A stretch of DNA of 64,000 nt from Tenggerimyces flavus (GTDB lineage: Bacteria; Actinomycetota; Actinomycetes; Propionibacteriales; Actinopolymorphaceae). The notes beneath the pieces are model-generated. The model saw only the letters and a list, made by a program, of their open reading frames with translations. It had not been told where the DNA came from and did no database searches. Position 1 is the first letter of the stretch; every line of letters starts with the position of its first letter. Shown piece after piece: positions 18,327-62,735 of the stretch. The DNA lies in assembly GCF_016907715.1 (NCBI RefSeq), contig NZ_JAFBCM010000001.1, positions 2,790,001 to 2,854,000 on the forward strand, in the 5' to 3' direction. Made by a program: the position numbers and the translations under genes.

Positions 18327-19229
18327 ATGTCACAACGGCGCAAGATCGCGGTCATCTACAACGAGCGCTCTGGCCAGCAGGGTCAGCCGGTGAGCGCTCA
18401 GCTCAAGGACCTGCTGACCGCGCAGGGGGTCGAGTTCGAGCTGTACGAGTTCGACCCTGGGCGGGTGGGGGCTCTGGTGCTCGGCGTTCTCGACTCCTCG
18501 CCCGACGCCGTGCTGGCCGCTGGTGGGGACGGGACGGCGACGTCGGTGGCACAGCAGCTGGTCGGTACGTCGGTGCCGCTTGGGGTGCTGCCGACGGGGA
18601 CGATGAACGTGCTGGCGCGGGATCTCGGCGTTCCGGCGCGGCTCGACGAGGCGGTGGCGGCCGTTCTCTCGGCGCCGACGCATGAGATCGACGTGGCGCG
18701 GGTGAACGACCGATTGTTCTTGTGCAGCACGGTTTTGGCCGTCCTCCCGCACCTCGGGCGGATCCGCGAGCGCGCGCGTTCGGCGCCGGGACCTCGGGTG
18801 GTGCAGCTGGTGGCTCGTACGTTCCAGACGCTCCGTACCTATCCGCGGATGCGGCTCACGATGGACGTCGACGGCACTCCGCACTCCGTACGGACGCGGG
18901 CCGTGGTGGTCTCGAACAACCCGCTCGCCGAGGGGCCGGCGCCGATGCCGGGTCGCGGGCGGCTCGACACCGGGAAGCTCGCCGTGTACGTGGCGCGCGA
19001 CCGGACTCGGTGGGATCTCGCGGGCATCGCGACGAAGGTGATGATGGGCAGCTGGAAGCAGGCGAAGCGGCTGCGCACGTACGGGGGTGAATCCGTACGA
19101 ATCGACTTCGACGGACTGGGCATGATGAGCGTCATGACCGACGGCGAGGTGATTCAGTTGACATTGCCGCTCCAGTTCGAGCTGTCGCCGCGAGCGCTGT
19201 CGGTGTTGATGCCTGGGGCGGCTTCATGA
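18327..19229 (+). CDS. diacylglycerol-kinase-family lipid kinase
   Basis: 300 aa. An N-terminal DAGK catalytic domain has the nucleotide motif GGDGTATSVAQQL (about residues 66-78) and the following PTGTMNVLARDLGVP, which defines the family (YegS/BmrU/LCB5-like). The enzyme phosphorylates a lipid alcohol such as diacylglycerol or a related glycolipid precursor at the cytoplasmic face of the membrane. AGGA lies 9 nt before the ATG. The next gene begins within its stop codon (ATGA overlap), so it is co-translated with the metallophosphoesterase. The exact lipid substrate is not readable from sequence. Confidence 0.9.
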   Translation: MSQRRKIAVIYNERSGQQGQPVSAQLKDLLTAQGVEFELYEFDPGRVGALVLGVLDSSPDAVLAAGGDGTATSVAQQLVGTSVPLGVLPTGTMNVLARDLGVPARLDEAVAAVLSAPTHEIDVARVNDRLFLCSTVLAVLPHLGRIRERARSAPGPRVVQLVARTFQTLRTYPRMRLTMDVDGTPHSVRTRAVVVSNNPLAEGPAPMPGRGRLDTGKLAVYVARDRTRWDLAGIATKVMMGSWKQAKRLRTYGGESVRIDFDGLGMMSVMTDGEVIQLTLPLQFELSPRALSVLMPGAAS

Positions 19230-20029
19230 CGGTGCGGATCGCGCAGATCTCGGATCTGCACTTCGGGCGGGAGATCGACACCATCGTGACGGCGCTGGCG
19301 TCGGAGCTGAGCGAGCGCGCGCCGGCGCTGGTGGCGGTGTGCGGTGACCTGACGCAGACGGCGCGGGAGCGGGAGTTCGTTGCCGCCCGTTCGTTCCTGG
19401 ACTCGATCGCGGCGCCGACGTTGGTCGTACCAGGGAACCACGACCTTCCCGGCTGGCGCGTCTGGTCGCGCTTCGCCCGCCCCTGGCGCCGATGGCGGCG
19501 GCACCTGGGGTCGGAGCCCTTCGAGACGGCGACCGCGGTGTCGCCGGGCCTGGTAGCGGTGGGCGTGAACACGGCGCGGAGCTGGGGCTTCCACCCGGAC
19601 TGGTCGCGCGGGCGGATCAACACGCGCCAGGTCGAGGAATCGTTGGCGGTCTTTGAGGAGTCGTCGTCCTCGGATCTTCGCGTTTTGGTGACACATCACC
19701 CATTCCTGCTGACCCAGGCCTCGCGAACGCGGGGGATGGTCGGCCGCTCGGCCGCGGCGTTGGTACGGCTGAAGGCCAAGTGCGACCTCCTGCTCGGCGG
19801 CCACACCCACCTCAGCTACTGCGGCGCCGCCGGCGGCATGGTGGTAGCGCAGTCGGGGACGGCGTTCTCGAACCGGCTGAAGGGCGAGCCGAACGGCTAC
19901 AACCTCATCGACGCCGACGGGCCGCGGATGACGGTGACCACGATGCAGTGGAACGGTTCGAAGTTCGAAGAGTCGGCGCGGAACGACTTCGAACGCGACG
20001 ACACCCGCACCTGGCACCCCGCCCACTAA
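19226..20029 (+). CDS. calcineurin-like metallophosphoesterase
   Basis: 267 aa. All metal-binding motifs of the family are present: DLHFG near the N terminus (D-x-H), GDLTQ, the GNHD signature (VVPGNHD), THHPF, and GGHTH near residue 192. Such enzymes hydrolyse phosphodiesters, cyclic nucleotides or lipid-linked phosphates using two metal ions. There is no signal peptide, so it is cytoplasmic. It is coupled to the lipid kinase by a 4-nt overlap, so a phospholipid or nucleotide-lipid substrate is conceivable but is inference only. The gene is followed by a hairpin-rich non-coding stretch. Confidence 0.9.
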   Translation: MTVRIAQISDLHFGREIDTIVTALASELSERAPALVAVCGDLTQTAREREFVAARSFLDSIAAPTLVVPGNHDLPGWRVWSRFARPWRRWRRHLGSEPFETATAVSPGLVAVGVNTARSWGFHPDWSRGRINTRQVEESLAVFEESSSSDLRVLVTHHPFLLTQASRTRGMVGRSAAALVRLKAKCDLLLGGHTHLSYCGAAGGMVVAQSGTAFSNRLKGEPNGYNLIDADGPRMTVTTMQWNGSKFEESARNDFERDDTRTWHPAH

Positions 20030-20047
20030 CCCGCGCCCGCGTTTTGT

Positions 20048-20094
20048 ATGAAGGGCACCTTCATTCGAACCTATTGAATGAAGGTGCCCTTCAT
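20048..20094. repeat. AACCTAT-loop hairpin, copy 4
   Basis: Perfect 19-bp arms (ATGAAGGGCACCTTCATTC / complement) close on GAACCTATT. Arm sequence differs from copies 1-3 except for GGCACC/GGTGCC, while the loop is kept. It lies 19 bp past the metallophosphoesterase stop and may end that transcript. Confidence 0.85.
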
Positions 20095-20104
20095 TCAAAC
20101 CAGG

Positions 20105-20221
20105 GCGCACTTCACCTACTGGGCTGGGGTTCTCCAACGTTGCAACAGCGCTCCGAACCCCGTTTCGGTAGGTGAAGTCGCGCAGGTTGTGGACAGCGAT
20201 CAGCTGATCCCGCATCGTGAC
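20105..20221. repeat. long palindromic element, copy A2
   Basis: Arms ACTTCACCTAC/GTAGGTGAAGT (perfect 11 bp) and GGGGTTC/GAACCCC. It is oriented opposite to A4, with which it shares the flank GTCACGATGCGGGAT (here as its complement at 20207-20221). Confidence 0.8.
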
Positions 20222-20222
20222 A

Positions 20223-20285
20223 TTGCCCATGAAGGGGGCGTTCCCACCCCTGCGGGCACCCTCGGAACGCCCCTTTGATGGGCAA
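20223..20285. repeat. large hairpin in the 20-kb island
   Basis: 22-nt arms with two mismatches (TTGCCCATGAAGGGGGCGTT... / ...AACGCCCCTTTGATGGGCAA) around a 19-nt loop. It begins directly after repeat A2. Confidence 0.75.
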
Positions 20286-20308
20286 AGTGGATGGCGCGTG
20301 AGGGCAGG

Positions 20309-20339
20309 GTTTCGAATGAGGGCGTCCCTCATTCGAAAC
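20309..20339. repeat. perfect 14-bp hairpin
   Basis: GTTTCGAATGAGGG, a CGT loop, then the exact complement. It is too tight for a usual operator and has no T-run after it. Confidence 0.75.
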
Positions 20340-20376
20340 GTGGCGGGGCAGCTCGGCCGCCAGTGGAGGGAGTGCG

Positions 20377-20431
20377 TTGGATGAAGGGCACCTTCATCCA
20401 AACCTATTGGATGAAGGTGCCCTTCATCCAA
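20377..20431. repeat. AACCTAT-loop hairpin, copy 5
   Basis: 23-nt perfect arms (TTGGATGAAGGGCACCTTCA...) close on AAACCTATT. It differs from copy 4 by paired changes on both arms, so base pairing is conserved. Confidence 0.85.
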
Positions 20432-20938
20432 ACAGCGGGAGTGGTGGCGAAGGGGATGGGGCGCGGCAGAGCTGGGTGCGCCAGCTGGTCGTCGGGGAGT
20501 GATGTCGCCAGGGAGCTGGCAGGGAGTCGATCAGGCGCCACGTCGATCTCGTCCCTGCGCCTTTCCGGTCGCGGCGGAGCTAGTCAAGGGCCGCAAAGCG
20601 GTCGCGCAGCGACGCCGCCCATCTGCGAAGCCGCCGCGGCGCCCTTTACTCGCTCCGCCGCGACCGGACACTGGCGGACGAGATGACGAGGCAGAGCACC
20701 ACTCCCCGGAGAGCCGGTGACGAACCCCGCTAGCCGGACAGCTCGATCGCGAGGCAGCCCGTCGGAGTGGACGCGAGCTGGTCGACGCGGAGCACCCACT
20801 CTACGGACAGCGCGCGGACCGCACAGCCGAGTGATCATGAAGGCGCAGCCGTCTCAGGCGCCAGTTGGGCGACATGATCACCGACATGATCACGTCCCGA
20901 GGGCAGGTGTGATCGGGTTCTCAGTGGTCAAGGTCTTC
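20432..20938. other. non-coding gap upstream of the iron-regulated gene
   Basis: No convincing gene on either strand. Two copies of an ACATGATCAC-like segment occur (20878-20896). Open frames here lack start signals and family resemblance. Confidence 0.4.
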
Positions 20939-20957
20939 CGAGCTTAGGCTTACCTAA
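20939..20957. promoter_or_regulatory. IdeR/DtxR-type iron box
   Basis: CGAGCTTAGGCTTACCTAA matches 15 of 19 positions of the known IdeR/DtxR consensus TTAGGTTAGSCTAACCTAA. It lies about 100 bp before the siderophore-binding lipoprotein gene, in the expected promoter region. Iron-loaded regulator would repress transcription here. Confidence 0.75.
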
Positions 20958-21059
20958 GCTATGGTCTCCCTCGTGCGGCTCTTCCAGGGGGTGAGCCGCA
21001 CGCCAAGCCAGCCAGACCAAGCCAGACGAAGCCAGAACAAGACCGAGAAGGGCATGTGC

Positions 21060-22070
21060 ATGGCAGTGCGCCAGATGGCGGTGGTGACGGCGGCGGTGCT
21101 CGCTGTCGCGGCGCTGGTGGGATGTGGAGCGAACACCACCAACGAGCCTCACGAGCCAGCTGCCGAAGGGCCGACAGCGAGCGCCAGCGCTCCGGACGAC
21201 GCGGCGGGCTTCCCGCTCACGGTCAAGCACGCCATGGGCGAGACGACGATCCCCGCCAAGCCGAAGCGGGTCGTCGCGCTCGACGCGTCGATGGTGGACG
21301 ACGCGCTGTTGCTGGGTACGCCGGTCGTCGGCTTCACCTCGTACCGCGCGATCGGCGACGAGCTCCCCGAGTACCTCGGCGACGCCCGCGACACGCTCGC
21401 GAAGGACGCGCAGTCGGTCGGCACGCTGGAAGAGCCCAGCCTGGAGAAGATCATCGCCCTCCAGCCCGACCTGATCCTGTCCGCCAAGGTCCGCCACGAG
21501 AAGATCTACGACAAGCTCAGCGCGATCGCGCCCACCGTGTTCAGCGAGACGACCGGCCCGAGCTGGAAGAAGAACATCGAGCTGATCGGCACCGCCCTCG
21601 GCGAGGAGACCAAGGCCAAGGACGAGCTAGCAAGGTATGAGAAGCGCGCCAAGGCGATCGGGGATGCGATCAACGCCAAGGCGGGCAACCCGACGATCTC
21701 GGTCGTACGGTTCGTCGACGGCCCCACGCGCCTCTACCAGAAGGCCTCGTTCAGCGGAATCGTCCTGCAGGACGCCGGCCTGGCACGACCAAAGGCCCAG
21801 GACGTCGAGGACTTCGCCCTCGAGATCTCCGCCGAGGAGACGCTCAAGGCCGAGGCGGACGACATCTTCGTGACGACGTACGCCGACGAGGCGGGCGTAA
21901 GCGCCAAGACCAAGGGGCAGATCCAGGGCGGCGCGCTCTGGAAGAAGCTCCAGGGCCGTGTCCACGAGGTCCAGGACACGTTGTGGATGACCCCCTGCAG
22001 CATCCAGGGCGCCGAGTACATCTTGGACGACCTGGCCAAGGCCTTCGAGGTGGATCCCCAGCGCGGGTGA
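21060..22070 (+). CDS. iron-siderophore ABC transporter substrate-binding lipoprotein
   Basis: 336 aa. The lipobox ALVGC puts the lipidated cysteine near residue 22, anchoring it outside the membrane. It belongs to the FecB/FepB/PeriBP-2 family: KPKRVVALDASMVDDALLLG near the start, PDLILSAKVRHEKIYDKLSAIAPTV in lobe 1, and a long connecting helix. It captures ferric siderophores for an ABC importer. No permease or ATPase gene is adjacent, so it must work with components encoded elsewhere. Starts at 21054 and 21060 both exist. AGAAGG fits 21060 better. An iron box upstream and a strong terminator downstream make it a single-gene iron-repressed unit. Confidence 0.9.
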   Translation: MAVRQMAVVTAAVLAVAALVGCGANTTNEPHEPAAEGPTASASAPDDAAGFPLTVKHAMGETTIPAKPKRVVALDASMVDDALLLGTPVVGFTSYRAIGDELPEYLGDARDTLAKDAQSVGTLEEPSLEKIIALQPDLILSAKVRHEKIYDKLSAIAPTVFSETTGPSWKKNIELIGTALGEETKAKDELARYEKRAKAIGDAINAKAGNPTISVVRFVDGPTRLYQKASFSGIVLQDAGLARPKAQDVEDFALEISAEETLKAEADDIFVTTYADEAGVSAKTKGQIQGGALWKKLQGRVHEVQDTLWMTPCSIQGAEYILDDLAKAFEVDPQRG

Positions 22071-62361: not shown

Positions 62362-62465
62362 TGTCCCCAGATCGGCGACTCCCCTTACCGGGGTGGGGTT
62401 CTGGCGGGTGTTGCCACGGTGCAGAACCCCAGCTGGGTAAGGGAAGTGCGGGCTGGCTGTGGATC
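62362..62465. repeat. long palindromic element, copy A3
   Basis: Arms ACTCCCCTTACC / GGTAAGGGAAGT (one mismatch) and GGGGTTC/GAACCCC. About 95 bp nearly identical (three or four changes) to copy A4, 271 bp away. Confidence 0.8.
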
Positions 62466-62631: not shown

Positions 62632-62735
62632 GTGTCCCCAGATCGGCGACTCCCCTTACCGGGGTGGGGTTCTGGCCGGTATTGCCACGGTGCAGAACCC
62701 CAGCTGGGTAAGGGAAGTGCGGGCCGGCGCTGAGC
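62632..62735. repeat. long palindromic element, copy A4
   Basis: Same as A3, with GTCACGATGCGGGAT (62615-62629) just before it, as at copy A2. After it, about 30 bp again resemble mrp codons (GGGGTCGCTCGCCACCATCC). Confidence 0.8.

What the first reader, a model, noticed from the sequence alone, without database searches (positions are those of the whole stretch)
20030..20440. Hairpin island: five different palindromes in 400 bp
Between the metallophosphoesterase gene and the iron-regulated lipoprotein are two AACCTAT hairpins, element A2, a 22-nt-arm hairpin (20223-20285) and a perfect 14-bp hairpin (20309-20339), almost back to back. Different families have accumulated in one place, as if it were a preferred landing site.
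Basis: seen in the sequence. Interest (0 to 1): 0.6.

Follow-up and report, generated by a model that had tools for sequence, protein, structure and literature searches.

The report
Mosaic island of mobile DNA palindromes
This 900-base gap between two genes is a patchwork of seven hairpin-forming repeats from families scattered in the hundreds through this one actinomycete genome, and elsewhere in the genome one such repeat sits almost always inside the loop of another, so hairpin loops do act as landing sites for further repeats.

Summary
The hairpins are real (z = -14; at most 1 such stem in 500 shuffles against 4 observed). The island is larger than reported: a ~105-nt palindrome (20564-20668) and a decayed further element (20831-20894) extend it to about 20895. 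It is not a unique pile-up: 12 other examined sites in the 8.5-Mb genome carry partial copies, with modules gained or lost. In a 1.6-Mb sample, 221 strong hairpins (2 in one shuffled control) fall into about ten dispersed families, almost never in genes, concentrated just behind stop codons and between convergent genes. The 14-bp 'perfect hairpin' is best read as a collapsed copy of a longer family.

The 'preferred landing site' idea gains a specific basis, outside this island: a 117-nt element (27 near-full copies) lies in the apical loop of another hairpin in nearly every copy (three host families, fixed orientation, CT at both junctions), and two IS481-like elements entered the same spot of the AACCTAT palindrome with 16-bp duplications. 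Within this island the landing order is not shown; part was probably copied as a block. The mobilising enzyme is unidentified (no Y1/RAYT transposase found). Likely a new variant of REP/BIME-type mosaics; terminator function unproven.

The parts
19226..20029 (+). Upstream gene, calcineurin-like metallophosphoesterase; the copied backbone starts 2 nt after its stop
   Evidence: ORF; PF00149 E 5e-15
20043..20099 (.). Family A doublet, alpha type: two ~25-nt palindromes around loop GAACCTATT
   Evidence: half-palindrome ATGAAGGNNNCCTTCAT has 336 copies in this genome, reversed control 0
20109..20178 (.). Family F hairpin ACTTCACC...GGTGAAGT
   Evidence: seven members clustered in the 1.6-Mb sample; a relative sits inside a 194-nt element in a family-I loop elsewhere
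20223..20285 (.). Family H hairpin TTGCCC(A/C)TGAAGGGGGCGTTCC, 19-nt loop
   Evidence: other copies at 5029028 and 4487587
20309..20339 (.). Collapsed family I element (I'): perfect 31-nt palindrome, probably formed by deletion between the two GGGCGTCCCT repeats of a full 61-nt I element
   Evidence: the deletion is inferred from full copies
20377..20431 (.). Family A doublet, beta type (GGATGAAGG), loop ACCTA, perfect 25-nt arms
   Evidence: identical 55-57-nt matches at several other sites
20564..20668 (.).
   Evidence: its core has a few dozen other matches in the genome
20831..20894 (.). Decayed family B element (GTGATCATGAAG...CATGATCAC)
   Evidence: 75-80% matches at B elements
20944..20959 (.). 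TTAGGCTTACCTAAGC, iron-box-like palindrome in the promoter region of the next gene, not part of the island
   Evidence: sequence; role as iron box is from general knowledge, untested
20961..22070 (+). Downstream gene, periplasmic binding (iron-siderophore type) lipoprotein; true start may be near 21055-21061
   Evidence: PF01497 E 8e-25

Best explanation
The interval is a mosaic island of non-autonomous, palindromic repeats comparable to REP/BIME arrays. Mobile palindromes of several families settle in 3' intergenic DNA, where insertion is tolerated; settled palindromes then serve as targets for others (shown for loops and arms at other sites); and homologous recombination or slippage between the repeats duplicates, shuffles and collapses modules. 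This island is one of about a dozen related mosaics in the genome. Shown: families, dispersal, modular copies, intergenic placement, loop insertions elsewhere, IS481-like insertions into family A. Inferred: that the families move by a trans-acting recombinase, and the order of events here.
For: Partial copies at 12 other sites with modules present or absent. 221 strong hairpins against 2 in one shuffled control in 1.6 Mb, about ten families. 245 elements, 3 in gene calls; 42% of convergent, 14% of tandem and 5.5% of divergent gaps carry one (P 3e-17 convergent against divergent); in tandem gaps median 24 nt after the stop against 131 nt before the next start. The 117-nt element D: about 23 of 27 copies cleanly inside one hairpin's loop (A 14, G 5, I 4), two more with loop halves of two different hosts, fixed orientation, CT at both junctions. 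A 194-nt F-containing element and a 22-nt remnant of D in I loops. Two IS481-like copies in family A with 16-bp duplications GAATGAAGGGCACCTT and GTATGAAGGGCACCTT.
Against: No empty site from a relative for any family. No identified mobiliser. The window island shows no element inside a loop. Block duplication explains part of the island without new insertions. The gene finder and family patterns were my own and approximate, and the sampled regions were chosen partly because they hold islands.
Confidence: 0.8

Rival explanations
1. The palindromes are mainly transcription terminators or mRNA 3'-end stabilisers that selection keeps behind genes; their clustering reflects function, not landing.
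For: Strong bias to convergent gaps and to just behind stop codons; very stable folds.
Against: No U-rich tail (no terminator-like site); near-identical dispersed copies; loop-nested copies; no clear compensatory changes in the arms of family G. The position bias can also come from removal of insertions in promoters.
Confidence: 0.3
2. D and the F-containing element are moved by an IS110/IS1111-type recombinase acting in trans, with CT as core dinucleotide (a version of the best explanation that names the enzyme).
For: CT at both junctions, no terminal inverted repeats, fixed orientation. Six IS110 copies here whose ends also give a CT core; at three of them the reconstructed empty site is or resembles a GC-rich hairpin with CT in its loop. 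IS621 uses a CT core and targets REPs (PMC11208160, PMC1525189).
Against: The ends of this IS110 differ from the ends of D; the three loop sites share repeated flanks and so may be one event; no IS110 copy was found in an A, G or I loop.
Confidence: 0.3
3. A single-strand (HUH-type) transposase inserts D into hairpin loops exposed on single-stranded DNA, as for RAYT/IS200 elements.
For: Targets are hairpin loops; orientation fixed; no target duplication beyond CT.
Against: No Y1 transposase (PF01797) in the genome, while five control genomes ring. Other HUH families were not searched, and the enzyme could have been lost.
Confidence: 0.2
4. The island is an ancestral segment spread only by block duplication and gene conversion; no palindrome ever moved on its own.
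For: Same module order at 8129 kb and largely at 5029 kb.
Against: A, G, B, C and J also occur alone in unrelated flanks; D occurs in three different host loops with constant ends; modules are absent from single copies.
Confidence: 0.1

Closest known systems
REP sequences / BIMEs (repetitive extragenic palindromes and their mosaics)
   Same: Short, high-copy, extragenic palindromes, often paired and in mosaic clusters; private to a lineage; targets of insertion sequences
   Different: About ten families in one genome, longer stems, family A made of two self-palindromic halves; no RAYT/Y1 gene found; no test of GTAG/CGTC tags was made
REPINs (paired REPs moved by RAYTs)
   Same: Family A is a pair of palindromes in inverted order around a short loop; single halves also exist
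   Different: No Y1 transposase; some singles look like collapsed doublets
REP dimers inserted within palindromes (A. variabilis GTAG-15, T. roseum GTAG-23, H. neapolitanus CGTC-1; PMC3733652)
   Same: A repeat sits inside another palindrome
   Different: Here the same element uses loops of three host families, with a fixed orientation and CT junctions, and uninterrupted host palindromes are abundant (as also reported for T. roseum)
IS1397, ISKpn1, IS621, ISPpu9 (insertion sequences that target REPs; PMC1525189, PMC8450116)
   Same: Mobile DNA aimed at palindromes; IS110-type CT core (PMC11208160)
   Different: The inserted element is a 117-nt palindrome too short to carry a transposase gene
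Neisseria mosaic intergenic repeat arrays (mentioned in PMC3733652)
   Same: Several repeat families interleaved in intergenic islands
   Different: Different host; details of Neisseria arrays not checked here

Membership tests
REP / BIME | Short palindrome in high copy number | tested here: met
   336 half-A palindromes, control 0
REP / BIME | Extragenic | tested here: met
   3 of 245 elements in gene calls
REP / BIME | Mosaic clusters of several units | tested here: met
   29 gaps with three or more elements; layouts
REPIN/RAYT system | Y1 (RAYT) transposase gene in the genome | tested here: not met
   PF01797: 0 matches, controls positive; a lost partner is not excluded
GTAG or CGTC REP superfamilies | GTAG or CGTC tag at one end | not tested
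   No systematic scan for the tags was made
IS110/IS1111 derivative (element D) | CT core at both junctions, no terminal inverted repeats | tested here: met
   Nearly all left junctions read CT; right junction is C followed by T of TAT in most copies
IS110/IS1111 derivative (element D) | Ends shared with a resident autonomous element | tested here: not met
   IS110 ends CCGC-CT-AATGGGACC / GGTGT-CT-AACC do not match D
MITE | Terminal inverted repeats of a resident transposon and target duplication | tested here: inconclusive
   D has no evident terminal inverted repeats and only CT in common at its junctions; other families not resolved
Known structured RNA | Match above an Rfam gathering score | tested here: not met
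   Only sub-threshold hits to unrelated eukaryotic microRNAs and an archaeal sRNA

The most novel reading that the evidence does not exclude
This lineage has an undescribed site-specific system in which hairpin loops themselves are attachment sites: non-coding palindromic elements integrate, in one orientation, at a CT core in the loop of other palindromes, and so build nested hairpin islands.
Probability: 0.35. Interest if true: 0.75.

Novelty: new variant of a known kind. Interest (0 to 1): 0.55.

Why it matters
REP-type repeats are among the commonest repeats in bacteria, yet how mosaics of different families arise is unclear. Here one genome holds intact hosts, nested inserts, hybrid flanks and collapsed remnants side by side, so order of insertion can be read in places, and the target (a loop with CT-AT) is narrow enough for a direct test of the enzyme. 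A genome rich in such elements without a detectable RAYT gene asks for another mobiliser.

Tried and rejected
Y1/RAYT as mobiliser: no PF01797 match. Known RNA: none. Intrinsic terminators with a T tract: none. Resident IS110 as the autonomous parent of D: ends differ. Longer elements with the right end of D: a whole-genome pattern search listed mostly the known D copies and loci could no longer be cut out, so an autonomous partner is not excluded. Loop preference against sequence preference: cannot be separated, because GAACCTAT is mostly confined to hairpins (35 of 43). Compensatory changes in family G: none clear. Vehicles: no match in plasmids or phages. Orthologous interval: no usable ortholog (the named loci are at most 64% identical in other families and were not examined for synteny). 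First hairpin script had an indexing error and returned nothing, replaced.

Full report
Observation. The region folds far better than shuffled sequence (z -14.35), and four of its stems pass a threshold that 500 shuffles of the island pass at most once each. The two AACCTAT hairpins are variants of one family. Reading on, the island continues past 20440: a ~105-nt palindrome lies at 20564-20668 and a decayed GTGATCATG element at 20831-20894. The repeated sequence begins 2 nt after the stop of the metallophosphoesterase gene (PF00149) and ends some 50 nt before an iron-box-like sequence in front of the PF01497 lipoprotein gene.

Same blocks elsewhere. A search of the own genome (8.52 Mb, one contig) finds parts of the island at many places. 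Dissecting 12 of them by module shows a common backbone in which modules come and go: 8129 kb has A-F-H(truncated)-spacer-A-spacer-J in the same order; 5029 kb lacks the 14-bp hairpin and has a single instead of a double second A; 2710 kb lacks F, H and I'; 5872 kb has a full-length family I element where the window has the 14-bp hairpin; 7697 kb lacks J. The truncation at 8129 kb lies between two AACG words, which suggests a short-homology deletion. The perfect 14-bp hairpin GTTTCGAATGAGGG-CGT-CCCTCATTCGAAAC equals what remains if a full I element is deleted between its two GGGCGTCCCT repeats; some full copies carry these as direct repeats. This is inference from comparison, not an observed event.

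Families. In 1.6 Mb of chosen regions I found 221 strong hairpins; one shuffled control of the same regions gave 2. They cluster in about ten families. Of 245 pattern-defined elements, 3 lie in gene calls. They sit in 54 of 128 convergent, 63 of 459 tandem and 13 of 235 divergent gaps (P = 3e-17, convergent against divergent); in tandem gaps the median distance is 24 nt from the upstream stop and 131 nt from the next start. Gaps with three or more different families number 21, against a simulated mean of 8.7 and a maximum of 17 or 18 in 1000 runs, whether or not element lengths are subtracted. Gene calls come from my own codon-usage script. Sampled stretches (200 kb each) of four related genomes have 25-60 strong hairpins per Mb against 138 here, with the caution that the regions here were chosen around islands.

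Loop insertions. A 117-nt element (D) has 27 near-full copies at 95-100% identity. Reading their flanks: 14 lie in the loop of a family A hairpin (GAAC-CT-ATT), 5 in a family G loop (TCCGAAC-CT-ATGGGA), 4 in a family I loop (GCGAT-CT-ATTCG), two between halves of two different host hairpins (I/A and I/G), and two are atypical (one next to an F-containing element within an A loop, one with an unrecognised left flank). Orientation relative to the loop is constant, and CT appears at both junctions in most copies. A 194-nt element with an F hairpin lies in an I loop, and a 22-nt remnant of D in another. Loop structure and loop sequence cannot be told apart as the target, because the loop word is mostly confined to hairpins. 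The two hybrid flanks suggest that recombination between D copies rearranges islands (inference).

Other landings. Two copies of an IS481-like element (family assignment from the look of the protein and its TGT...ACA ends, not from a profile search) have both entered family A after ...GAAGGGCACCTT, with 16-bp duplications that differ in one base, hence probably two events. Six IS110 copies have a CT core; for three the reconstructed empty site is or resembles a GC-rich hairpin with CT in the loop, but these share repeated flanks and may be one event.

Distribution. The half-A word is found 336 times here and at most once in each of 395 other actinobacterial genomes sampled. A composite probe of all families over 294 genomes of the order matched only one other genome, G005 of the same family but another genus, which has one I-like and one B-like element, both close behind a predicted gene; only two candidates per genome were scored, so copy numbers there are lower bounds. 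A B-like hairpin also appeared in a sample of G007. No match in plasmids or phages.

Mechanism. Most likely: mobile palindromes settle in 3' intergenic DNA, settled palindromes become targets, and recombination reshuffles the result. Steps shown: nesting, targets, dispersal, module presence and absence. Steps inferred: movement by an enzyme in trans, and the history of this island. IS110-type (CT core) and HUH-type enzymes are both possible; neither is shown. Terminator function is possible given the position bias, but there is no T tract and no transcript evidence.

Novelty. Mosaic clusters, insertion sequences aimed at REPs, and REP dimers inside palindromes are known (PMC1525189, PMC3733652, PMC8450116). 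The loop-specific, oriented nesting of a non-coding palindrome in three host families, in an actinomycete without a detectable RAYT gene, is to my knowledge a new variant; the literature search was limited to a held library.

Noticed in passing
G000 2669384-2670760 and 2995380-2998074 (L227-L229): IS481-like element, two copies, both inside family A palindromes with 16-bp duplications; the second is itself interrupted by another transposase gene.
   Followed up: yes
L220, L222, L225 (IS110 copies at 2.56, 5.76, 1.44 Mb): IS110 element whose reconstructed target is (or resembles) a hairpin CCCCGGCCGC-CTAACCA-GCGGCCGGGG behind a repeated gene; three more copies (L221, L223, L224) share identical flanks.
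   Followed up: partly
L191, L201: Element D flanked by halves of two different host hairpins, suggesting recombination between D copies.
   Followed up: no
G000, e.g. 8045826, 6693727, 2855511: Family C palindrome AATGATCATGTAAACATGATCATT, mostly between convergent genes or behind genes; shares ATGATCATG with family B and may be a terminator or a protein site.
   Followed up: no
window 62378-62447 and 62649-62718: Two F-family hairpins 271 bp apart next to a family C and a family E palindrome, a second mosaic in the window.
   Followed up: no
G000 2711051-2711593 (L005/L035): The tail of the island backbone is repeated about four times in tandem (~143-bp unit).
   Followed up: no
L282 and L284 (genome G005): I-like and B-like palindromes in another genus of the same family, each close behind a predicted gene.
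   Followed up: partly
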